A stretch of DNA of 64,000 nucleotides, taken from the NCBI GenBank assembly GCA_029262065.1, contig JAJDAC010000036.1, forward strand, positions 1 to 64,000, written 5' to 3'. This document shows positions 7,103-36,522 of this stretch, piece by piece. Each line of letters starts with the position of its first letter. The first letter of the stretch is position 1. This DNA comes from Candidatus Krumholzibacteriota bacterium. GTDB taxonomy: Bacteria; Krumholzibacteriota; Krumholzibacteriia; JAJRXK01. Below the pieces are notes generated by a model. That model did no database searches. It saw nothing but the letters and a program-made list of their open reading frames with translations, and was not told the DNA's origin. Position numbers and translations under genes: made by a program.

Positions 7103-7157
7103 ATGGTCTAGACTGGACCGGACGTTGCCTTTGGAACACCGATTTACGGAGGGTTTC

Positions 7158-9080
7158 ATGTCCCGGTCCGTTCTGTCCCTGACCTGTCTCCTGCTCACGC
7201 TCCCAGTCGTCTCGGCCGAGACTCCCGTGCGTGCCGAAGCGCAGGCTCTGACCTCGCTCTCCTACTACCGCTCCTTCGACGGCACTGGCAACAACCCATT
7301 CCATCCCACCTGGGGCGCAGCGGGAACCGCCTTTCAGCGTTTTGCTCCGGCCGACTACATCGACGGCTCGGGAATGCCAGTTGGGCAGGATCTCCCCAAC
7401 CCGCGTGCCATCAGCAACGCCTGCGCGGCTCAGTCGGGTTCGATTCCCAACGATCGACAGGCCTCACACTACGTGTGGCAGTGGGGGCAGTTCATCGATC
7501 ACGATATCGCGCTGACTCTCATTGCCGATCCGGGCGAGGCACTCCACATCGATGTGCCGATGGCCGACCCGTTCTTCGACCCCGACGAGACGGGTGTCCA
7601 GATCATTCCGTTCATGCGATCGAACTATGTCATGGTGAACGGTGTTCGCGAACAGCTGAATCAAACCACGTCGTACATCGACGGCTCCATGGTCTACGGT
7701 CCCAACGAAGACCGTGCGCGAGAACTTCGTACGCTCGACGGTACTGGAAGACTGAAGACCAGCACCGGGGATCTTCTGCCTTTCAACCTCAACGGATTCC
7801 CCAACGAACCCACATCGCTGGATCCGGGTTTGTTTCTGGCTGGCGACGTTCGGGCCAACGAACAGGTAGGTCTCACGGCGCTGCACACCCTGTTCGTGCG
7901 CGAGCACAACTACCAGGCTGACTGTATCCGCAATGACGCGCCACAGCTTCCTGGCGAAGACGTCTACCAGCTGGCTCGCGCCATCGTAGTGGCCGAGATC
8001 CAGGCCATCACGTACCGGGAGTTCCTGCCCATGCTTCTGGGTCCCAATGCCCTGGCTCCGTACGATGGGTTCGACCACGAAGTCCAACCCGACAACGCAA
8101 ATGTCTTCGCGGGTGCGGCGTTTCGGGTAGGGCACACGCTACTGCCATCGGTGCTGCCGCGTATCGACGCCAGCGGCACCGAGATTCCCCAGGGTCACCT
8201 TGCCCTCGCCGATGCCTTCTTCGACCCACAGCCCATTCTGGACGCTGGCATCGATCCGTTGCTGCGGGGGCTGGGCTCCGCCCGCGCCGAGGAAATCGAT
8301 GCCGTCGTGGTGGACGACATTCGTAACTTCCTGTTCGGTGATCCTGGTCAGGGCGGACTCGACCTGGCGGCTCTCAACCTGCAGCGGGGCCGCGATCATG
8401 GTTTGCCGCGATACAATCACGCGCGCCGCGATATGGGTTTGCGTCCGAGAAGCAGCTTTGCCGAAGTATCGTCCAATCCGCAGGTCGTGGCTCGACTGGA
8501 AGCCATCTACGACGATGTGAACGACATCGATGTGTGGCTTGGTGGCCTGTGCGAGGACCACGAATCGGGCATGATGGTGGGCGAGCTATTCGCGACCATC
8601 ATCACTCGTCAGTTCGTTGCCTTTCGAGATGGCGACGGTTTCTGGTACCAGAAGACATTGCCCGCCGAATGGATTGGCTACGTCGAACAACAGGACCTGG
8701 CCACGATCATCCGCCGGAATACTGCCATTGGCTCAGAGTTGCCCGACAACGTGTTCCTGGCTCCCGATCCGATCACGGCCGTGAATCTGGCCGCGGGCGG
8801 CGAACTGACGGTTGGAATTCCCTATCCGAACCCTACCTACGGACGGGTGTCGCTGCTCACGTCACCGTCGCAGGACTCAGCCATGGCCACGGCGAACGTC
8901 TTTGACCTGCGTGGTCGACGTGTGGCTACTCCACGTCTGGTTCCCTCCGCCGCCGGCGAGTTCCGCTTGGATTGGAGCGGCCTGAACGAGCAGGGTCGGC
9001 GGGTCAGCGCTGGCACCTACCTGATCGTGGTCGAGAGCGCCGGCCAGAGGGCCAGCCGCAAAGTGGTGGTCGTCGACTGA
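7158..9080 (+). CDS. Secreted animal-type haem peroxidase with C-terminal sorting-like tail
   Basis: 640 residues from the ATG at 7158, which has GGAGGG close upstream and begins a signal peptide (SVLSLTCLLLTLPVVSA). The body matches the peroxidasin/myeloperoxidase superfamily. FIDHD (about residue 115) carries the distal His, LFVREHN the catalytic Arg, and FRVGHTLLP (about residue 325) the proximal haem His; LNLQRGRDHG is also characteristic. The last 85 residues are a FlgD-Ig/T9SS-like tail (PYPNPTYG, FDLRGRRV, SAGTYLIVVES). It probably acts outside the cell, oxidising halides or organic substrates with peroxide for defence or polymer modification. The haem ligands are present, so it should be active. 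Confidence 0.92.
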   Translation: MSRSVLSLTCLLLTLPVVSAETPVRAEAQALTSLSYYRSFDGTGNNPFHPTWGAAGTAFQRFAPADYIDGSGMPVGQDLPNPRAISNACAAQSGSIPNDRQASHYVWQWGQFIDHDIALTLIADPGEALHIDVPMADPFFDPDETGVQIIPFMRSNYVMVNGVREQLNQTTSYIDGSMVYGPNEDRARELRTLDGTGRLKTSTGDLLPFNLNGFPNEPTSLDPGLFLAGDVRANEQVGLTALHTLFVREHNYQADCIRNDAPQLPGEDVYQLARAIVVAEIQAITYREFLPMLLGPNALAPYDGFDHEVQPDNANVFAGAAFRVGHTLLPSVLPRIDASGTEIPQGHLALADAFFDPQPILDAGIDPLLRGLGSARAEEIDAVVVDDIRNFLFGDPGQGGLDLAALNLQRGRDHGLPRYNHARRDMGLRPRSSFAEVSSNPQVVARLEAIYDDVNDIDVWLGGLCEDHESGMMVGELFATIITRQFVAFRDGDGFWYQKTLPAEWIGYVEQQDLATIIRRNTAIGSELPDNVFLAPDPITAVNLAAGGELTVGIPYPNPTYGRVSLLTSPSQDSAMATANVFDLRGRRVATPRLVPSAAGEFRLDWSGLNEQGRRVSAGTYLIVVESAGQRASRKVVVVD

Positions 9081-13986: not shown

Positions 13987-15807
13987 ATGAATGGTCGCGA
14001 CGTACTGGCTATCTCCATTGTTGGCATTGTTTTATACGCGATTGCCGGCGTGCCCCCGGCTTCGGGCCAGTTCACGCGCATCACTAGCGGTCACCCCGTG
14101 GACATCGTAGACGGTTCACGCGGCGTAACCTGGATTGACACCGACGGAGACGGCGACCTGGACCTCTACGTAACCAACGGAGGCGCCTCGGCTGAATCCA
14201 ACGAGTACTACCGCAACGACGCGGGCGTGTTCGTGCGGGTCACCACGTCAGCGTTGACCAACGAGGGCATCCGCGACGACGGCGCTTCCTGGGGTGACTT
14301 CGACAACGACGGCGATGCCGACCTGTTCACGTGCAGCTGGCACGGTGAAGTGAACTACCTGTTCGAGAATCTCGGTAGCGGAGTGTTCCAGAGGAATCCG
14401 TTGGGGCCCACGTCCTACTCCGAGGGGTGCTCCTGGGTGGACTACGACAACGACGGCCGGCTCGATCTCTACGTGGCCAACTCGGGCAATTCGGGACTTC
14501 CCGTCGCCGAGCGAAACAACTTCCTGTTCCACAACGACGGGGGCAGTTTCACGCGCATTCTGGTGGGTCCGTTGGTGAACGACGAATTGCGATCGCGCCA
14601 GCCCAGTTGGTGCGACTACGACGGCGATGGCGACATGGATCTGTTCGTGGCCAACGAGTCGGGCGACAACAATCGGCTGTACCGGAACCTTCTGGTCGAG
14701 ACCGGCACCGCCGATTTCGAAGATCTCGCGGCGGGCGCTGTTACCAGCGACGGTGGCAACTCCTGGAGTGCGAGCTGGGGTGACTTCGATAACGACGGCG
14801 ATTTCGATCTGTACGTGGGCAACAGTGCCAACGAAACGAATTTCTTCTATCGCAACGAACTGGTCGAAACCGGAACGGCCACGCTTACGCGCATTACCAC
14901 CATGGACCTGGGCTCACAGGGTGGTTGGGCCGCGGGAACGTCCTGGGCCGACTGGGACAACGACGGCGATCTCGACCTGTTGCAGACAAATGGATTCCAC
15001 TCGAACTCGGGCCAGCAGCTTCGCAACTGGTACTACCGCAACGACGCGGGAATCATGAACCGGTTCACCTTCGCCAACGGTGCGCCCGACGACCAGGGGT
15101 GGGGTTACGGTCATTCGTGGGGTGACTACGACGGCGATGGCGATCTGGATCTGTACACCGCCAACTGGTTCCAGGTTGCGCAGGGAAACTTTCTCTATCG
15201 CAACGACGCCGAGCTTGTGGGTAATCACTGGCTTCAGATCGACTGTGTGGGAACGGACAGCAACAAATCGGGAATCGGCGCGCGTGTCACTGTCACGGCA
15301 TTGATTGATGGTTCCAGTGTAAGCCAGCTGCGCCAGGTGGCTGGTTCCGATGGCCACTGCAGTCAGAACAAGCGGGTTCACTTCGGGCTTGGCGATGCCA
15401 CGATCGTTGATATCCAGATCTCATGGCCGTCAGGCACGGTACAGGATCTGGCTGCCGTGACCGCCGACCAGGTGCTGACGGTGGTTGAGCCCGAGGTTGT
15501 CGCCGCAGTGCCTGTCGCAGGGTTGGCCGGTGAGCTGACGGCCAGTCCGAATCCGTTCGGGAATGAAACCGCGTTGCGGTACCGCCTGACGAACGCGGCC
15601 GACGTGAGGCTCGTAGTCTACGACGTGATGGGTCGTCGCGTGCGGCAGTTGGAGTCGGGAGTCAAGAGCGTCGGCTGGCACCGGATCGCGTGGGACGGTC
15701 GGGACGAAGCCGGACGGGTGTTGGCGTCGGGCGTCTACTACGGGCGGCTCGAACGAGCGGGGTCGTCCCGGGTTCTGGGTTGGACTCGGATTACCCTGTT
15801 GCGGTGA
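13987..15807 (+). CDS. Secreted FG-GAP/ASPIC (UnbV-like) beta-propeller protein with sorting-like tail
   Basis: 606 residues with an N-terminal hydrophobic signal segment (ending near PASGQF). Seven calcium-binding FG-GAP/VCBS loops of the form D-x-D-x-D-G-D-x-D-L (for example DTDGDGDLDLY, DFDNDGDADLF, DWDNDGDLDLL) are spread over residues 45-400 and should form a propeller. An ASPIC/UnbV domain follows (NHWLQIDCVG, SGIGARVTV, VDIQISWPSG). The final 85 residues are a FlgD-Ig/T9SS-like tail (SPNPFG, YDVMGRRVRQL, WDGRDEAGRVLASGVYY). The likely place is the cell surface, in carbohydrate or protein binding. The gene stands alone, 174 bases before the next one. Confidence 0.9.
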   Translation: MNGRDVLAISIVGIVLYAIAGVPPASGQFTRITSGHPVDIVDGSRGVTWIDTDGDGDLDLYVTNGGASAESNEYYRNDAGVFVRVTTSALTNEGIRDDGASWGDFDNDGDADLFTCSWHGEVNYLFENLGSGVFQRNPLGPTSYSEGCSWVDYDNDGRLDLYVANSGNSGLPVAERNNFLFHNDGGSFTRILVGPLVNDELRSRQPSWCDYDGDGDMDLFVANESGDNNRLYRNLLVETGTADFEDLAAGAVTSDGGNSWSASWGDFDNDGDFDLYVGNSANETNFFYRNELVETGTATLTRITTMDLGSQGGWAAGTSWADWDNDGDLDLLQTNGFHSNSGQQLRNWYYRNDAGIMNRFTFANGAPDDQGWGYGHSWGDYDGDGDLDLYTANWFQVAQGNFLYRNDAELVGNHWLQIDCVGTDSNKSGIGARVTVTALIDGSSVSQLRQVAGSDGHCSQNKRVHFGLGDATIVDIQISWPSGTVQDLAAVTADQVLTVVEPEVVAAVPVAGLAGELTASPNPFGNETALRYRLTNAADVRLVVYDVMGRRVRQLESGVKSVGWHRIAWDGRDEAGRVLASGVYYGRLERAGSSRVLGWTRITLLR

Positions 15808-15981
15808 AGCCGCTACCAACGCGACCCCGAACAACGCAGACTCCGGCCAGAACCCGACCACCAACGCCGTGCACCTTCCGGATTTGGGCTTGTTTGAGCA
15901 TCTGAGGCACGTTTCCTGTCGGCACGATCCTTCCAATATCCCGCACGCTCCCAACAACCCAACCCACCGGGAGGTCCCCAC

Positions 15982-18039
15982 GTGCGCCCAGTCCGTGCCA
16001 TTGTCTTCGTCTCGTTTCTCCTAGTCGGAGACCTACTCGTCGGATGTTCTTCCGACGATCCCTTCGCACCCATTCTGCCGGCGCCCGAATCCACGCTGCG
16101 AAGCGTCGAACCTCTTCTGCAGCTGGCCGACATGGCCACACCGGTGCGCAATCTTCAGCTTGGTCTGGATGGCCAACCCATCCGCTTGGCCGTCGGCGAC
16201 CGAATCGAGCTCACCATGACCCTGGATGGTGGGCACTCCTCGTCGTGGGTGGCGGAACTGACCCAGGCAACTGAGTCACTCGACGACGTGCTGGCTCGCC
16301 TGGAGCCAAGGCGACTCGGTGCGGCGGGTTGGATGCCACCGGTGTCCGTGGCGAATGGGCGGGCGACGATCGACAGCCGCGACACTGATATTCCGGTGGT
16401 TCCCACGCAGACGGTTTGGGTCGAGGGCGTCCTCGATTCCGATTCAGATGCCGCTGGGACGAGCTTGATTCAAACCGGGGGCCTCTTGGCCGATGCGCTA
16501 GGAAGCGATGACCTCTCTGGGCTGCGCAGCGGATCCGATGGAACAGCACTTGGGCTCAGCAACGGCAATGTCATTGCCGTGCTGGGTTCAATAGGCGGAT
16601 CTTCGATCAGTAGTATCCAGTTCGTAGTGGGGGAGACAGTCGACGGCGCTGACGGCACGACTCTCGAAAAGCTTCGTGCCTGGTTTCAGGCTGAACTGAT
16701 GAATGAGGGGGCCGCGGGTGTGACCGTGACTCTCAATGCCGACGGTAGCATGACCGTCAACAACGCCAGTGGTGCGCTACTCGAGGACATCCAGCTTCAG
16801 GTCGGCGGACGCCCGGCATTCAATCAGGCGATGCTGTTCGGCCAACAAATACCATCTGGCGAAACCGCTTCAAGCACGGCCCTGTTGAGTCCGGCCGAGA
16901 ATTCGGATGTTCTCGACACCGTGTTCAACGGTTCGGCAGATCGTCTGGACTTCAGATTCGTCGGCGGCCATACGGACATCAACATCAGCGGCACTCGGGG
17001 TGGAGAGGCGATCACCCCAGGTGGTCTGGCGGTAGTCCAGGGCGTTACCACTCTCGACGACTTGTTTAGCGTCATGGAGTCATCTTTCCAGGTCTCGAAC
17101 CAGGTGGGAATTCAACTGGATGCGTCCGGAAGAATCACCGTACAAGGCGATGAAGGCCTCCCCAGCGGGATCGGAAATATCAGTATCACCGAGGCGGGAA
17201 ACATCAATAGCAACATCACCGGCTCCATTGACTTCTCCGTGCTTTCACCGGCGCGGGATGCGACAGAGTTTGCCGCGGCGTCCTTGGTTGTCGATCCGGT
17301 TGGCCGCACGTTTCCGTTGCAATTCTCGTTCGAGAAACGAACCGGCGAGAATGTCTGGGATTGGTTCGCCAGCGTCGACGAGGGCACGATCACAACCGGC
17401 GCCGCTGGAATAGCCAGTTTCAATTCCGATGGTAGTCTCGCATCCTTCTTGATGACCGACGGAGGGGTCTCCATCACCATTGCGACCGATTCCGGAATCT
17501 CGGAGATCCAGATTCTGGCGGAAAACCTGCAGCAGGTGGATGGCCTCGGCGAGATCTACCTGAACCCCGATGGCGTGCCGCTTCCCGTCCGCATTGAACA
17601 GTTCGAGTTGGCGGCCGACCGCGCCGATGGCGAGCGCATTGCGCTCATCCAAACCAGTGGAATCGGCATCGGCGAGTTGTGGGTAGGCTCCACGGTGTGG
17701 TGGGCACCGGCTATTTCCCAAACCAGCCTGGCTTCGCTGCGCATGCCACGCACATGGCCTACGGGTTTGGAAGTCCTGGACGATGAGTTCACACTGACCA
17801 TGTCCGTCGAGCGCGAGGGCTTCGTGGGGCCGGCTCGTTCCATCGTTCAACCCGCCGATGCTTCGCTGGACGACTTCGTTTCCGCCCTGGCATCCGCGCT
17901 TGGCGAAACGTCTACTGCAACGGTTCTGGAGAACGGCTCGGTGCAGGTCGAGAGCCCGGGCGTGACGGCGCTGTGGTTGTGGGAGCCTGGGGACGAGGAG
18001 AACATCATGGAATTCCGCATGCTTCCTCCCGTGCAGTAG
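15982..18039 (+). CDS. Lipoprotein built from flagellar-hook (FlgE)-like modules
   Basis: 685 residues from a GTG at 15982 with GGGAGG upstream. A lipoprotein signal (LLVGDLLVGC) is followed by modules that resemble the outer domains of hook protein FlgE. TALGLSNGNVI and NADGSMTV occur near residues 185-260. A FlaE-like stretch lies near residues 433-500 (DPVGRTFPLQFSFEK, then FNSDGSLASF). A short core of the type TLDDLxxxxxxxL recurs four times (SLDDVLARL, TLEKLRAWF, TLDDLFSVM, SLDDFVSAL). The N-terminal and C-terminal rod helices that make FlgE polymerise are absent, and no flagellar gene is nearby. It is presumably a surface lipoprotein. Function unknown. Confidence 0.75.
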   Translation: MRPVRAIVFVSFLLVGDLLVGCSSDDPFAPILPAPESTLRSVEPLLQLADMATPVRNLQLGLDGQPIRLAVGDRIELTMTLDGGHSSSWVAELTQATESLDDVLARLEPRRLGAAGWMPPVSVANGRATIDSRDTDIPVVPTQTVWVEGVLDSDSDAAGTSLIQTGGLLADALGSDDLSGLRSGSDGTALGLSNGNVIAVLGSIGGSSISSIQFVVGETVDGADGTTLEKLRAWFQAELMNEGAAGVTVTLNADGSMTVNNASGALLEDIQLQVGGRPAFNQAMLFGQQIPSGETASSTALLSPAENSDVLDTVFNGSADRLDFRFVGGHTDINISGTRGGEAITPGGLAVVQGVTTLDDLFSVMESSFQVSNQVGIQLDASGRITVQGDEGLPSGIGNISITEAGNINSNITGSIDFSVLSPARDATEFAAASLVVDPVGRTFPLQFSFEKRTGENVWDWFASVDEGTITTGAAGIASFNSDGSLASFLMTDGGVSITIATDSGISEIQILAENLQQVDGLGEIYLNPDGVPLPVRIEQFELAADRADGERIALIQTSGIGIGELWVGSTVWWAPAISQTSLASLRMPRTWPTGLEVLDDEFTLTMSVEREGFVGPARSIVQPADASLDDFVSALASALGETSTATVLENGSVQVESPGVTALWLWEPGDEENIMEFRMLPPVQ

Positions 18040-22778: not shown

Positions 22779-25255
22779 TTATCTGCGCCAAACGAACTCA
22801 CCGGTTGAGACTGCCCAGTCATTGCCGAAAAAGCCCGCGCCGGCCACGACTTCGCCTTCTCCGGAGTCGTGGAATACCGTTACATCCGGGTAGGCAATGC
22901 CCGGTGCCAAATACGGGCGACGATTCGTGAGCCGAAGCCCCGACGCGCCCGTGCCCGACACGATTCCCACCGTGGCGAAGTTGCTCCCCGATCGCGGACG
23001 CACGGCGATCACGCCCAGATCGTTGCCTTCGAGCGTGCGATCTCCCATGGCGAACCGGCCCCGCTCGACCCGCACGGTGTCTCCCCACAGTTCACTCCAG
23101 TGGGCGTGCGTGTCGGCGTTTCCGTAGAGAATCACATTCCGATCGGGCTCCGATAGTGGATCGAATTGGGTGTCCGCTACCACGTCGAGCGTTGCGTTTC
23201 CCTGGTACCACAGGTACTCCGCGTCGTAGCGGGCCTTCGCCCAGGCCCAGGCGGTTTCTTCCGCGCTGCCTTGCGTACCAACTACAAGCTGCACGCGATG
23301 GTTGAATGCTTCCTTGAAGGTGCCCGCGCGGCGGGGTCCCTTCTGCGTTGGGTCGGGTGGACTCGATGCTTGCCAGTTGCCGTCACGCTCCAACCAGACG
23401 CGAAGGTCTTCGGTTGGCTCGCAAAGCACGTCGTCACCGTCGAGTTCTACCCGAACCTCCCCATGAGCCAGGTGTCCCACATCAAACCCAATCATCTTCA
23501 CGTTTTCGGTGGTGCCATGGATCTTGCCGCCCTTGGGATCTGATTCCACATCTACCCGACTCATGGCGAACGGCCGGTCCTGCATGGCCAGGTGAACCCA
23601 GTGTCGCGAAGCGCTGACCCCCAGGTGTCCGGTCTGAAAGCGCACCTGGCGAACTTCTTCCATGGGCGGCCGTCGGTGGCGCGCCAGAAAATCAAACATG
23701 GGCGCCCAATCCACACAGTCCGCGCCTGCTTCTTCGGACAAGTCCCACCAGTGTCCCGCATCCGGCTGCTCGTGATATACGAAGTCCGTGTGGAACTCCT
23801 GGAGCCGGTTGACGGCCAGGCGCGCCTGATCCACCAGTACGTTGTCGTCGTCGGTTCCGTGCAGTACGTACACTCCCAGCCCGTCCAGGTTTGGCGCCAT
23901 CGCAAGGGTTCGGCTGGGATGCGTGCCTCGTTGAACCATTGATTCCAGCGGCGACGTGCCTTGTTCTTCCTCGCGCACGCGATACGTCCAGAAGCTGATC
24001 CAGCCGGCACTGGGTGCTATGGCGGCAACATGTCAGGATACAAGGTACCCAGGTGCCACGTGCCGTGTCCCCCCATGGAATGCCCGGTCAGGTAGACTCG
24101 ATCGGCATCGATATCCAGGTTTTGCGTTCCGTGGTCCAGAGCTTCCAGTGCATCGAGCCGGCCCCAGCCTTCCCAGTTGAACCCGTAGGGACGACGGTTG
24201 GTGGGGGCCACTACGTGTCCCCACGAAAACCCGCCGTACGAACCCGATTGATTGATGGCTTCCACCGCCGCGCCGTGCAGGCTCAGGAACATCGCCTTCG
24301 GTGAGTCGTCACCGCTGGCGGGCAAGAACCCGTAGTACTGAATACTGCCGTCGATCCGACTCTCGAACGTCACTCGCCGGTTCTCGTGAGAAGCTTTCAC
24401 GGCCAGTGGAATGTCGGCTGCGTCCACGATCTTCATCTGCGAGTGCAGAGAGATGCTCAGGTTCTGACTTCCTGCCTCGCGCGGTACCGAGCCCTGGATC
24501 GGGAACCGGACCTTGCGCGTACCCAGTGGCGGTACGGTTGGAATGTCCACCCATGCCGCGTCCGACGGTTCCAGCTGAACCTTCAGTCGCGCGTCCCGTA
24601 GCGGCGCATCGCGGAGATTCAAGACGACAATCGAGCCCCAGGTATTCACGCGCTGGCGAACCACCAGGTCTGGAAGCGTAACGTCCTTGGCATTCAACCC
24701 ACAGTCTTCGGTAACCCGGGTGAGTTCGGCCTTGAGTCGTCCGAATCGCGTGCCGAAGAACAACAGGTGATTGGTGCCCGCGTGAAGCTTCACGGGAATG
24801 CGTGAAAAATCAAACTGCGGCTCCCACGACTCCCAGGTTTCCTTGTAGCCGTAGACGTTTCCCATGCGAGGTTCGCCGTTCACGTACACGCCGGTGTAGC
24901 CCAGGCCGCGTAGTACGTAGACGCCATCGCGATCCACTTCCAACGTCGCCAGTGCATAGCCCGAAAGGTCGTCGTGTTCGATCCAGCCGGTGCTATCGGC
25001 CGAAACAAATGTCCACTGGCTATCCGATTCGGTCGGCGGTGCCCAAGTGTTCTGGGCCAGTTCTCTTTCCACTTCATCGGCTTGCATGTGTGGCCGGTGG
25101 AGGCGGTCGACGGCTCTTACTCGAACCGTGGCTACGTCGATTGACTGCGCCAAGGCGCAGTGGGGCGCAAGGGTGGCGAGCAACGCCAGCATGAGTAACG
25201 GTGCCAGGGGAGACTTCAGTGACAACAGAACAGTGGCAGGTCTCGCGTAGGTCAT
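22779..25255 (-). pseudogene. Secreted prolyl-oligopeptidase-like alpha/beta hydrolase, single frameshift
   Basis: The frame starting at the ATG 25255 has a signal peptide (LAPLLMLALLATLAPHCALA) and a beta-rich N-terminal region. It reaches the nucleophile motif VYLTGHSMGGHGTWHLG, then stops at 24017 just after YPDM. A second frame, from about 24026 to 22779, continues exactly as expected: AAIAPSAGWISFW, the acid site VLHGTDDD and the histidine DAGHWWD, then a C-terminal beta domain. One T missing in the ATGTTGCC run near 24026 would restore an 825-residue enzyme with an intact Ser-Asp-His triad. It is probably a periplasmic or secreted peptidase or esterase. As written, the gene is broken. 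Confidence 0.8.
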
Positions 25256-25281
25256 GGTCCACGTATACACAGCATGTGAAA

Positions 25282-25309
25282 CTTCGGACAGGGAAATCCC
25301 TGTCCGAAG
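25282..25309 (-). terminator. Terminator after the lipoprotein gene
   Basis: A perfect 13-base stem (25282-25294 with 25297-25309) has a minimal loop. On the minus strand it is followed by TTTCA. It ends transcription of the gene that stops at 25339 and separates it from the hydrolase gene. Confidence 0.75.
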
Positions 25310-25338
25310 CCTCAACCCCACGTGGTTGGCGTTTGTGG

Positions 25339-25956
25339 TTACGGGGTGACCGGCGTCCACGTAACGTAGTAGTATGCCGCGCCCTTGCACTCGTTGCGCG
25401 TGTTCCAAACCGAGAACTTGTACAGGCCCGACCCCGAGCCGTCGGAATTTTCCGTGTAGCGGTCGTCTTCGTAGCGCGTGCCGGCCGCCCACTTCTGGTC
25501 GGTGCCGCGTTCGAATCTGTGCGTGGCCCAGCTGTGGTTCAAGAAGTCGGCGTCGGCTCCGTCGTACTCGCCGATCCAGTATTCCACCTGGAAGGTAGCG
25601 TCGGGATCGCGAGGTACCAGGAATTGAATGGGGTCCATGTTCACGCCCATCCGGACCCCGTCGTCGATGGTCAGGTTCTGATTGCCCGTATCCTCGATGA
25701 TCACGTTGTTGCCGAACGTATCGGGCGTGCGAACAATGAGTCGGTAGCGGAACTCGCCGGGGTTGCCCGGGGTGTTCTCGCAGTCTTCCTGTGCCCAGAT
25801 CGACGACATCTTCACGGTCACCTCGAAATGTGTCGATTCGGCCGGCGCGGACGGGCCGGTGGGGTCATCGGAGCCACAGCCGGTAACCAGCGCCACCAGG
25901 GTTACCAGGGCCAGAATTGCTAACTTGTGGAAATCATTGTGTTTAATAAAAGTCAT
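25339..25956 (-). CDS. Lipoprotein of unknown function
   Basis: 205 residues from the ATG at 25956, which has CGGAGA upstream. The lipoprotein signal is LVTLVALVTGC, followed by a Ser/Asp/Pro linker. The mature part has two Cys (in QEDCENTPG and NECKGAAYYY) and an aromatic-rich, beta-type composition. No family is recognised. It has its own terminator and follows, by about 105 bases, the tailed protein at 26062-27663, so the two may share a promoter. Confidence 0.7.
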   Translation of the reverse strand: MTFIKHNDFHKLAILALVTLVALVTGCGSDDPTGPSAPAESTHFEVTVKMSSIWAQEDCENTPGNPGEFRYRLIVRTPDTFGNNVIIEDTGNQNLTIDDGVRMGVNMDPIQFLVPRDPDATFQVEYWIGEYDGADADFLNHSWATHRFERGTDQKWAAGTRYEDDRYTENSDGSGSGLYKFSVWNTRNECKGAAYYYVTWTPVTP

Positions 25957-26061: not shown

Positions 26062-27663
26062 TCACGGCCCCGGTTTCACCACGACCTTCCGCACCACCGT
26101 CCGCTGATCTTGCATCAACTGCACGAAGTACGTCCCGGCACTGACGCGCTGGCCATCTTCTGCACGGGCGCTCCACACCACTGTGCGCGCCTCGGGTGTG
26201 CGGGCGCCGGTAGCCAGGGTAGTGACGCGTCGTCCGCGTACATCAAACACGGCCACCCGGTAGGGGCCCGTGCCCGGCGCCAGGAAGGCGATGGTGGTTT
26301 GGTCGACGAGCGGGTTGGGTGTCGGCGCGTAGAGCGTGGCGGCCAACCCTATCGTGGCCGAGCTCAACTTGGCTGGTCCATGCCACCATCGGTTGCCGTT
26401 GTCGTCAACTTCCAGCCAGTAGTTGGTTTCACCCAGGGGCGGACTGGAGTCTGTCCACTCGTAGGAGTTGGTTCCTCCGCTCGGAAAGACAGACCCAAGT
26501 GGCTCGCGGCTGCCGTCAGCCGCGGTGCGGTACACGTGGAATGCCGCGGTGCCGACGCCGTTCAAGCCCCAACGAACCGTGGCGCCAACCGCGGCGCGGG
26601 TGGCTTCGAAGTACGCGAACGCCACTGGAACCGGCGGCTCGGGCTGTTCGTCACCCAGTACATAGATGTCGTCGACCACCCAGGTGTTGCCTGGTGGGTT
26701 CACGGTCTTCGACCCCGGAGGAAGTTGAAACTCCCATTGAAACATGTTCGCGGGAGTCAGTGCGATGCCCAGCGGAAAGATCTCAACGAGGGCAGGTTCG
26801 ACACACGGATCGGGCTCGGTGCACATGGAATCCTGAAACCACAATTCCGTCCAGGTGGCGCCCCCGTCCGAAGACCCCATGACACGGGCGGTTGCGGCCG
26901 TCTCATTGCGAACCACGCTTTGAAACTGAAGGGCAGGACTGAGCTCGTTCGACAAATCCAGAAGGGGTGAAGTGAGTGTAGCCGTGTAGCCGCCGGCCGG
27001 ATTGCCGACCAGGTCCCCCGAAGCGATCGCCGAACCTTCGTCCTGGATGTAGGTGTCGGGCACGACTTCCCAGTTGCTGGCGGGGTCGGTGGAGTCCCGA
27101 ACGTACCCTTGGCTTTCGGGCGGACCCTCGTCTTCGCTGCGCAGAAACGTGGCCACCGGCTGGGAGATGCAAAGCCCGTTGCCGTCATTGCCGAAGATGT
27201 CCTTCCAATCGACTACGACCAGTGGCGCCAGCTTGGGCGCGGTGGTACTGCAGATTTCCCAACCAAAGACCTGCGTGGTCTTGGGCCCAACCTTCTTCGA
27301 CGGGTCGGTGTTGATGTAGATCATCTCGCGCGTGCCGTCTTCGGGATCGATCTTCGTGGCTTGGTGTGTCCAACCCGGAGGATCGGTCGCGAACTCCGTG
27401 GACCCGCCATCCAGATGGAACACGCTGAATTGACACACCCGCAGACCATTGGAGTTGTTGATGATGTGGATCTTCAGGTTCCACTTGTCGGTTTGTCCGG
27501 TGATGGCTTCGGCCGAGTAGCCAACCTTGATGGCGGCACTGTTGGCGAACGCGTCGCTGCTGGAAGAGAGCAGCGTGACCGGCGGTACGCACAAGATCGA
27601 TACCACCGACAAAGCTGACAACCAGGATGCAGCGAAACTACGGATCATTGGCCATGCACGCAT
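26062..27663 (-). CDS. Secreted protein with C-terminal FlgD-Ig/T9SS-like tail
   Basis: 533 residues; the ATG at 27663 follows GGAGG by six bases. A signal peptide (LSALSVVSILCVPP) is followed by a beta-rich region. A second block near residues 180-330 carries paired Cys and a jelly-roll-like pattern (GYTATLTSPLLDLS, WVVDDIYVLGDE), reminiscent of MAM/immune-inhibitor-A accessory domains. A fibronectin-like segment and the tail follow (APTPNPLVDQT, FDVRGRRVTTL, SAGTYFVQLM). There is no visible catalytic motif, so it is likely a surface binding or structural protein. Confidence 0.82.
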   Translation of the reverse strand: MRAWPMIRSFAASWLSALSVVSILCVPPVTLLSSSSDAFANSAAIKVGYSAEAITGQTDKWNLKIHIINNSNGLRVCQFSVFHLDGGSTEFATDPPGWTHQATKIDPEDGTREMIYINTDPSKKVGPKTTQVFGWEICSTTAPKLAPLVVVDWKDIFGNDGNGLCISQPVATFLRSEDEGPPESQGYVRDSTDPASNWEVVPDTYIQDEGSAIASGDLVGNPAGGYTATLTSPLLDLSNELSPALQFQSVVRNETAATARVMGSSDGGATWTELWFQDSMCTEPDPCVEPALVEIFPLGIALTPANMFQWEFQLPPGSKTVNPPGNTWVVDDIYVLGDEQPEPPVPVAFAYFEATRAAVGATVRWGLNGVGTAAFHVYRTAADGSREPLGSVFPSGGTNSYEWTDSSPPLGETNYWLEVDDNGNRWWHGPAKLSSATIGLAATLYAPTPNPLVDQTTIAFLAPGTGPYRVAVFDVRGRRVTTLATGARTPEARTVVWSARAEDGQRVSAGTYFVQLMQDQRTVVRKVVVKPGP

Positions 27664-34548: not shown

Positions 34549-36522
34549 TCACGGAAGGCGAATTCCGCCGGGGTGGTGGGACTCCCACCACCGGCGGGCT
34601 GAATGCTGGGTCCACGCGGACGTCTGTGAGCATGCCGCAAGCCGTCGCTCGAGTTCCGGCGCATCGCGTGGCCGATCGTCGGGGCGCTTCTGCAAGCACC
34701 ACATGACTATCGATTCCAGGTCTTCGGGAATGTCCAGTTCAGAGAGAGCGGAGGGCGCTCTTGGCGCCTGGTCTACATGGGCAACCATCATGGCGATAGG
34801 AGTCTTGCCGTCGAAGACCGTTCGCCCGGTAAGCAGCCAGTAGGCGACGCAACCCAACGAATAGATGTCAGAGCGTGCATCGACGTCGGCGGCGCGCGCG
34901 GCCGTCTCAGGTGCGCAGAATGCGGGGGTGCCGGCAAAGGCACCGAGACCAAGGGCGGTTGTGCCACCGTCGTAGTTCTGGCTACGGACCAGGCCGAAGT
35001 CGAGGATCTTCACGAAGTCGTACTCGAGCCCATGGTGGCAAAGGTAGATGTTGGCGGGCTTGATGTCGCGGTGCACCAGGCCCGCCGAATGCGCCTCGGC
35101 CAACGAGTGGCAGGCTTGTCGTAGGATATGGGTCACACGGGAGGGCTCGATGGGGCCCTCGTGTTCCACGAGTGTTTCCAGGTCCAGTCCATTCAAAAGT
35201 TCCATGACGTAGTAGAACTCGCCCCGGTCGGTGTGACCGAAATCATAAACCTTGATGGTGTGGGCTGAATGCAGAGCCGCGGTGGCCTTCGCTTCCCGCT
35301 CGAACTGTTTCATGAGCAACCGATGCTGCGATCCATCTGCACCGTTCTTGGCATTGGGTCGGATGAGTTTGATGGCCGCGGGGCGGGCGAGCATCCGGTG
35401 CTCGGCCTGATAGACGATTCCCATGCCGCCCTCGCCCAGGCGCCGTCCCAGTCGGTACTGGCCCAACTCCATGGCTTCGTCGACGCGCTTGCGCAATTGA
35501 CCGATCTGCAGCAACGCGCCCGATGCAAATGCCGCGGCTACACCCAGCAGAATCCCCGCCACCCACAGAGCCACCGGTCCGCGACCTTGAGCCCAGGACG
35601 ATCCGGGCAGGGGGGCCATACGTATGGAGTAGCGTCGATCCGCGAACGAAAATTCTCGCGTCCACGCGGCTTCCAGGTCCAGGCCCGGCTTGTCAATTGA
35701 GCTTGAGAACAGAACCTGTTTACCCTCGGGAGCGGACTCGTCGCGCAGCAGCACGTGGATTCCCTCGGTGCCGCCGCCGGCGATGGCTTCGCGGACGCCG
35801 GCGTCCAATCGCAGAAGCACGGCCACCAGCCCGAGAAACTCCCTGTCCGGTGAGCCGCCAACTTGCTTGAATACCGGTTCGTACCCAATGACCGAGAATA
35901 CGTCGTGGGGATCCTCGATCAGACTGTATCGCTCCGATGCCGTGGGGCTTCCGCTGTCACGAGCTCGAAACGACTCGTCGCCACGTTCGGGGTTGCCGGT
36001 CACGTCCAGTCCAAGCACCACCGGCTCGAGCGGCTCCATATATAAGATCGGCAGATAGTCGGGCCGACGTTCAGCCGCAATCAGCTTTGCCTCGGCATCT
36101 TTCTGCTGTACCCGGAATTCTGGAAATCCTTCCGCTCGGACAACGGTCTCCAGGCTGTCGCGGGCGGAGTCTCTGATCATTGGCATCCACTCGAATGCGT
36201 AGATGCTGGGGTGACGTTCGACGATGGGCCGCACGAACGTGGCAAATTCTTGCCGCGACACCTCCGCTGATGAAAGAAACAGTGCAGCTACCGAGCCCAG
36301 GAGATCCATTGCAACACCGAAATGGGTCTCGACGGCAAACGCCACCTGTTGCGCCTGCAGTATGAATTCTTCGCGCTTTTCGAGCCGGTCGCGTCCGCGA
36401 AAAGCTCCGAACAGGAGAGTTGAGAGCAGGGCGATGACCAGGAATACGCTTACGGGACCGATGATTCTCCACGGTCTCGCAGGATCGGCCGCGTGGCTCG
36501 GCTGGCCGAGTCGGGGGCGCAA
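34549..36522 (-). CDS. Ser/Thr protein kinase with periplasmic CHASE sensor domain
   Basis: 657 residues from a TTG at 36522; no ATG lies upstream in frame before the divergent promoter region. A membrane helix (VSVFLVIALLSTLLFGA, about 23-40) is followed by a CHASE domain of about 220 residues (FVRPIVERHPSIYAFEWMP, SLIEDPHDVFSVIGYEPVF). A second helix lies near 315-340. The cytoplasmic Hanks kinase has LGEGGMGIVYQAEH (about 360), lysine in AAIKLIR, HRDIKPAN (about 482) and DFGLVRS, all intact. CHASE normally feeds histidine kinases or cyclases, so joining it to a Ser/Thr kinase is uncommon. It should pass an external small-molecule signal to phosphorylation inside. Confidence 0.9.
   Translation of the reverse strand: MRPRLGQPSHAADPARPWRIIGPVSVFLVIALLSTLLFGAFRGRDRLEKREEFILQAQQVAFAVETHFGVAMDLLGSVAALFLSSAEVSRQEFATFVRPIVERHPSIYAFEWMPMIRDSARDSLETVVRAEGFPEFRVQQKDAEAKLIAAERRPDYLPILYMEPLEPVVLGLDVTGNPERGDESFRARDSGSPTASERYSLIEDPHDVFSVIGYEPVFKQVGGSPDREFLGLVAVLLRLDAGVREAIAGGGTEGIHVLLRDESAPEGKQVLFSSSIDKPGLDLEAAWTREFSFADRRYSIRMAPLPGSSWAQGRGPVALWVAGILLGVAAAFASGALLQIGQLRKRVDEAMELGQYRLGRRLGEGGMGIVYQAEHRMLARPAAIKLIRPNAKNGADGSQHRLLMKQFEREAKATAALHSAHTIKVYDFGHTDRGEFYYVMELLNGLDLETLVEHEGPIEPSRVTHILRQACHSLAEAHSAGLVHRDIKPANIYLCHHGLEYDFVKILDFGLVRSQNYDGGTTALGLGAFAGTPAFCAPETAARAADVDARSDIYSLGCVAYWLLTGRTVFDGKTPIAMMVAHVDQAPRAPSALSELDIPEDLESIVMWCLQKRPDDRPRDAPELERRLAACSQTSAWTQHSARRWWESHHPGGIRLP

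What the first reader, a model, noticed from the sequence alone, without database searches (positions are those of the whole stretch)
15982..18039. Lipoprotein assembled from flagellar-hook-like modules without a flagellum
The sequence has a lipobox and at least four FlgE-like cores, plus a FlaE-like region with VGRTFPLQFSFEK and FNSDGSLASF. It lacks the terminal rod helices needed for hook assembly. No flagellar gene is nearby. It may be a hook-derived adhesin or surface scaffold that has not been described.
Basis: partly seen in the sequence, partly recalled or inferred. Interest (0 to 1): 0.6.

Follow-up and report, generated by a model that had tools for sequence, protein, structure and literature searches.

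The report
Lipoprotein carrying the flagellar hook's head
This flagellated, uncultured bacterium has a second copy of the outer domains of its own flagellar hook protein, cut off from the parts that build the hook and joined to a lipid anchor; selection has kept the outermost domains while the inner one decays, which points to a hook-like part reused on the cell envelope.

Summary
In detail: window 15982-18039 (+) encodes a 685-aa predicted lipoprotein (lipobox LVG|C22) whose middle matches the flagellar hook protein FlgE (Pfam FlgE_D2 above cut-off). It lacks the D0/D1 rod parts. "Without a flagellum" is wrong: the genome (Krumholzibacteriia, inferred from relatives) carries a full flagellar cluster on contig C16, with its own 691-aa FlgE. 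The lipoprotein's residues 135-503 are 75% identical to that FlgE, against 48-52% to FlgE of the same family. It is therefore a lineage-specific paralogue of the host's hook head, found in 1 of 80 genomes of the phylum. Silent sites against FlgE are saturated, so the copy is old and under purifying selection. Selection is domain-specific: D3/D4 (151-430) is 82% identical to own FlgE while the D2 remnants are 52%; hook orthologues show the reverse. Lipoprotein-only changes at conserved sites are 3/173 versus 21/70 (P=4e-10). Both flanks are weak but significant extra D3/D4-like modules, so "four cores" is supported. Best reading: an envelope-anchored hook-head mimic whose D3/D4 surface still makes hook-type contacts; the target is inferred, not shown. 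I found no published precedent and no relative beyond FlgE itself.

The parts
15969..15975 (+). Shine-Dalgarno-like GGGAGGT, 6 nt before the GTG start
   Evidence: sequence read directly
15982..18039 (+). 685-aa predicted lipoprotein carrying the FlgE head (LIP)
   Evidence: open frame, Pfam FlgE_D2, 75% identity to own FlgE over residues 135-503
15982..16047 (+). lipoprotein signal peptide, residues 1-22: basic RPVR, hydrophobic core, lipobox LVG|C22, then SSDD (no Asp at +2)
   Evidence: sequence; lipobox consensus from general knowledge, no signal-peptide program was run
16090..16383 (+). N-terminal module, residues 37-134, degenerate D3-like
   Evidence: FlgE profile positions 185-256, 7.6 bits, above all 2000 shuffles; strands and helix predicted at 74-130 (low confidence)
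16390..17490 (+). FlgE-derived block, residues 137-503 (start of D2, D3/D4, most of the rest of D2)
   Evidence: 75% aa identity to own FlgE; DNA 72% over 959 columns
16432..17271 (+). outer hook domains D3/D4, residues 151-430, the part under strong purifying selection
   Evidence: 82.1% identity to own FlgE, 3/173 lipoprotein-only changes at conserved sites; pLDDT mostly 80-97
17272..17490 (+). D2 remnant, residues 431-503; class-wide motif YDSLGxxH replaced by VDPVGRTF
   Evidence: together with 137-150: 51.7% identity to own FlgE, 21/70 lipoprotein-only changes; Pfam PF07559
17509..17781 (+). linker, residues 510-600, mostly low confidence; no match in the own genome and only weak chance-level hits in 80 genomes
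   Evidence: pLDDT 24-35
17785..18018 (+). C-terminal module, residues 602-679, degenerate D4-like
   Evidence: FlgE profile positions 302-404, 5.2 bits, above all 2000 shuffles; pLDDT up to 79

Best explanation
SHOWN: the gene is a chimera made from a duplicate of the host's own flgE. The stretch encoding D3/D4 and part of D2 (residues 137-503) sits behind a lipoprotein signal peptide and is flanked by two further, much more diverged modules of the same kind; D0 and D1, which build the hook tube, are absent. The copy is old at silent sites and under purifying selection concentrated in D3/D4, while D2 has decayed. INFERRED: the protein is exported by Sec, lipidated, and sent to the outer membrane (no Asp at +2, by the E. 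coli rule), where it displays a hook head. It cannot polymerise as a hook. D3/D4 still makes the contacts it makes in the hook, either by docking laterally on the hook where it leaves the outer membrane, in the way D3/D4 domains of neighbouring FlgE subunits touch in the Campylobacter hook, or by binding whatever partner the hook head binds. It would act as a membrane-anchored partner or mimic of the hook.
For: Own FlgE, 691 aa, lies just after a FlgD-like gene on contig C16 in a full flagellar cluster that includes the L-ring gene flgH, so the hook crosses an outer membrane. Identity to own FlgE is 75%, to family FlgE 52/48%; trees pair the lipoprotein with own FlgE (100% support for D3/D4, 78% for D2). 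Silent differences in D3/D4 are at saturation (0.588 vs 0.610 expected) while 82% of residues are identical; dN 0.20 with dS saturated. Domain contrast: outer 82.1% vs D2 51.7% for lipoprotein-FlgE, but 56.8/64.4, 50.0/65.5 and 61.8/80.5 for FlgE orthologue pairs; lipoprotein-only changes 3/173 vs 21/70, Fisher P=3.8e-10. ML branch of the lipoprotein relative to FlgE: 2.2x in the outer block, 6.8x in D2. D3/D4 in the C. jejuni hook make D3-D3, D4-D3, D4-D2, D3-D2 and D3-D1 contacts between subunits (PMC5097172). Structure search: best hits H. pylori FlgE2 (5npy) and the C. jejuni hook (5jxl).
Against: No direct evidence of expression, location or binding. D3/D4 could be conserved only for fold stability. 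The gene is not in the flagellar cluster, has no clear flagellar promoter (one imperfect sigma-54-like site, shuffle P=0.03, no -12 GC), and is known from one genome only. The extra modules and a linker of about 90 residues would also suit a plain surface scaffold. Foldseek alignments of the whole low-pTM model (0.46) have large rmsd.
Confidence: 0.4

Rival explanations
1. A plain surface adhesin or spacer: the D3/D4 beta modules were co-opted as a stable extracellular scaffold, extended by two more modules, with no remaining link to the flagellum.
For: Four tandem modules with a long flexible linker and a lipid anchor look like a stalk. The gene lies away from the flagellar cluster, among unrelated genes. 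FlgE of P. aeruginosa has been studied as a protein that takes part in host interactions (PMC5431167).
Against: The copy's D3/D4 stays 82% identical to the host's own hook head with saturated silent sites, while the flanking modules and D2 diverged freely; a mere scaffold need not hold that particular sequence.
Confidence: 0.35
2. A decoy: the lipoprotein shows the hook's outermost surface to phages or other agents that use the hook as receptor, or competes with the hook for them.
For: The most exposed hook domains are the ones kept. Phages that attach to flagella exist, e.g. phage Chi (PMC10399903), though Chi uses the filament.
Against: No hook-binding phage is known to me for this group; no relative of the head was found in viral contigs. 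A decoy would be expected to vary fast rather than be strongly conserved.
Confidence: 0.1
3. A gene in decay, or an assembly or binning artefact (a chance chimera, or a contig from another species).
For: Only one genome has it; the genome is a set of 59 contigs and the gene and flgE lie on different ones.
Against: A 685-codon open frame with ordinary coding composition (GC by codon position) throughout, saturated silent sites with conserved protein, and matching GC; genome contamination 0.57%. A recent pseudogene or assembly chimera would show near-identical DNA to flgE.
Confidence: 0.05

Closest known systems
Flagellar hook protein FlgE (long form with D3/D4, as in Campylobacter jejuni, PDB 5jxl/5az4)
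   Same: Residues 137-503 are homologous to D2-D3-D4 of FlgE; D3/D4 is inserted in D2 in the same way (PMC5069557).
   Different: No D0, D1 or C-terminal rod helix, D2 truncated and eroded, lipoprotein signal peptide, two extra modules; cannot form a hook.
H. pylori FlgE2 (hook-protein paralogue, PDB 5npy)
   Same: A second FlgE-type gene in a flagellated genome; best structural match of the model (E 2.8e-5).
   Different: Deposited as a flagellar hook protein; as far as I know it has no lipid anchor. Only 11% identity in the structural alignment.
FlgH, the L-ring lipoprotein
   Same: A flagellum-associated outer-membrane lipoprotein around the rod/hook base; the genome has a normal FlgH.
   Different: A different family; no FlgE-derived sequence.
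FlgD_ig / Por-type C-terminal domains in neighbouring secreted proteins
   Same: Flagellar-looking Pfam names on envelope proteins in the same window.
   Different: These are sorting-tail or Ig-like domains, unrelated to FlgE; the lipoprotein has none.

Membership tests
Flagellar hook protein FlgE | FlgE_D2 domain (PF07559) | tested here: met
   23.1 bits vs cut-off 22.7 at 432-499; own FlgE 56.1 bits
Flagellar hook protein FlgE | N-terminal rod domain PF00460 and C-terminal PF06429 (D0) | tested here: not met
   absent in the lipoprotein, present in own FlgE
Flagellar hook protein FlgE | D1 domain (PF22692) | tested here: not met
   absent in the lipoprotein, present in own FlgE
Flagellar hook protein FlgE | Encoded in a flagellar cluster and exported by the flagellar secretion system | tested here: not met
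   gene on contig C36 with no flagellar gene among the neighbours scanned, and a Sec/lipoprotein-type signal peptide; flgE follows a flgD-like gene on C16
Long-form hook head (D3/D4) | D3/D4 block homologous to class FlgE, keeping residues conserved in at least 90% of class FlgE | tested here: met
   306-bit profile match over 136-504; 33 of 41 such sites kept in 137-503, and 7 of the 8 changes fall outside 151-430
Bacterial lipoprotein | Basic n-region, hydrophobic core, lipobox [LVI][ASTVI][GAS]C at the end of the signal peptide | tested here: met
   RPVR, a hydrophobic stretch, then LVG|C22, read from the sequence; consensus from general knowledge
Bacterial lipoprotein | Lipidation and outer-membrane location | not testable with these tools
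   needs fractionation or labelling; no Asp at +2
Adhesin | Binding to a host or surface ligand | not testable with these tools
   no binding data

The most novel reading that the evidence does not exclude
An outer-membrane-anchored hook-head protein that docks on the rotating or growing hook (a lipid-tethered collar, cap or brake), held by selection to match the host's own hook surface: a new class of accessory flagellar component made by excising D3/D4 of FlgE.
Probability: 0.25. Interest if true: 0.8.

Novelty: new variant of a known kind. Interest (0 to 1): 0.55.

Why it matters
Outer domains of hook proteins vary widely between bacteria, and their role beyond stiffening the hook is open. 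Here evolution ran a domain-excision experiment: the outer domains were freed from the hook, given a lipid anchor, and then kept, while the structural D2 domain decayed. If these domains bind the hook or a hook partner, it shows that D3/D4 has a portable binding function and that flagellar parts can be recruited as envelope lipoproteins. The signature (fast D2, slow D3/D4, saturated silent sites) can be searched for elsewhere.

Tried and rejected
Non-flagellate relic: rejected, the genome has a full flagellar cluster. Recent gene conversion or recent duplication: rejected, silent sites are saturated; an old conversion of the D3/D4 block cannot be excluded. Related lipoproteins elsewhere: none by P0001 patterns in 84,980 GTDB genomes (close relatives only), none in 80 phylum genomes by protein or profile (the two-match genomes G020 and G033 look like one FlgE split at contig ends), none in viral contigs. 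N and C flanks searched alone: only weak hits to beta-propeller peptidases and other unrelated proteins. PDB sequence search: nothing credible. Synteny in the family: neighbours have no clear orthologues at a shared place. Promoter: no sigma-70 or sigma-28 site; one imperfect sigma-54-like site, inconclusive.

Full report
Observation. The open frame at 15982-18039 (+) is 685 codons long with a GTG start and a ribosome-binding-site-like GGGAGGT. It starts with a lipoprotein signal peptide ending in LVG|C22. Pfam finds FlgE_D2 at residues 432-499 just above the curated cut-off, and nothing else. A profile made only from FlgE proteins of the class matches residues 136-504 at 306 bits.

What it is. 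The same genome carries a normal FlgE of 691 aa just after a FlgD-like gene on contig C16. The cluster also holds FliM, FliP, FlhB, FlhA, MotA, MotB, FliK, the L-ring protein FlgH and flagellin, so the organism is flagellated as far as genes can tell. Its closest named relative by FlgE is a Krumholzibacteriia MAG. The lipoprotein is 75% identical to its own FlgE over residues 135-503 and only 52% and 48% identical to FlgE of two other members of the family. Among 80 genomes of the class, which is the whole phylum as held, 48 have the FlgE head, and only this genome has two different copies. So it is a lineage-specific duplicate of the hook's outer part. Own FlgE has the rod, D1, D2 and C-terminal Pfam domains; the lipoprotein has only D2.

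Anatomy. Campylobacter FlgE has D3 and D4 inserted inside D2 (PMC5069557). By alignment, the lipoprotein has the start of D2 (137-150), D3/D4 (151-430) and about the first two thirds of the rest of D2 (431-503). These boundaries are mine, set from the alignment and the predicted strands. AlphaFold2 gives pLDDT mostly 80-97 for 160-500 and shows beta-beta-alpha-beta-beta-beta modules at 197-273 and 330-404, with the same topology at lower confidence at 74-130 and 602-667; 510-600 is mostly low confidence. The flanking modules score 7.6 and 5.2 bits against the FlgE profile, above all of 2000 shuffles each and 71 natural fragments. They align to the D3 and D4 parts respectively. Structure search returns H. 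pylori FlgE2 and the C. jejuni hook first, although global superposition is poor because domain orientations are uncertain (pTM 0.46). A model of a Krumholzibacteriia FlgE finds the C. jejuni hook at 1.7e-28.

Selection. Codons at identical residues differ between the lipoprotein and own flgE as often as randomised codons would (outer block 0.588, expected 0.610), so silent sites are saturated. Against this, 82% of D3/D4 residues are identical; dN over the whole block is 0.20. The contrast between domains is the strongest result: lipoprotein versus FlgE is 82.1% in D3/D4 and 51.7% in D2, whereas all FlgE pairs tested are better conserved in D2 (56.8 vs 64.4, 50.0 vs 65.5, 61.8 vs 80.5 within the family). 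At sites where two outgroup FlgEs agree, the lipoprotein alone changed at 3 of 173 outer sites and 21 of 70 D2 sites (P=3.8e-10), while FlgE alone changed at 4 and 1. Branch lengths: outer 0.139 (lipoprotein) and 0.064 (FlgE), D2 0.715 and 0.106. The class-wide YDSLGxxH motif of D2 became VDPVGRTF. D2-D2 contacts hold hook protofilaments together and D3/D4 add further contacts (PMC5097172), so the pattern fits a protein that no longer packs in a hook but still uses the outer domains. D2 is also cut short, so part of its decay may be structural.

How it may work. The lipid anchor and signal peptide suggest export by Sec and attachment to the outer membrane (inferred). The conserved D3/D4 head could bind the hook itself, the hook's partners, or other cells. 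I favour contacts of the hook type because the retained sequence follows the host's own hook, but none of this is shown. A plain surface scaffold is nearly as likely (0.35), a decoy less so (0.1).

Known or new. A search of a library of 5.39 million open papers found no FlgE-derived lipoprotein. Hook paralogues such as FlgE2 exist. The protein fails three tests of being a hook protein (rod helices, D1, locus and export route), so I file it as a hook-derived chimera, not as FlgE.

Limits. One genome, a draft assembly, no expression data. An ancient conversion of the D3/D4 block could mimic part of the domain contrast, though not the saturation with conserved protein.

Noticed in passing
window 7125-9080, 13987-15807 and 26062-27663: Secreted-type proteins ending in FlgD_ig or Por-type C-terminal domains (a haem peroxidase, an FG-GAP/ASPIC-UnbV protein, and one of unknown type; the last is below Pfam's cut-off), suggesting a sorting-tail secretion route in this genome.
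   Followed up: no
genome G001 (same family as the window genome): No FlgE head detectable although the genome is 97% complete, while family members G002 and G003 have it: flagellum loss within the family is likely.
   Followed up: no
window 34549-36522: A CHASE sensor domain and a Ser/Thr protein kinase domain in one 657-aa protein; CHASE is more usual with histidine kinases or cyclases.
   Followed up: no
L147, L116 and L117 (flagellar cluster on C16): Good sigma-54 (-24/-12) like sites, e.g. TGGCACGGCCATTGCG and TGGCACATGGGTTGCG, and a sigma-54 activator gene: flagellar genes here may be under sigma-54.
   Followed up: partly
window 22779-23978 and 24017-25492: Two adjacent open frames on the minus strand without any Pfam match.
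   Followed up: no
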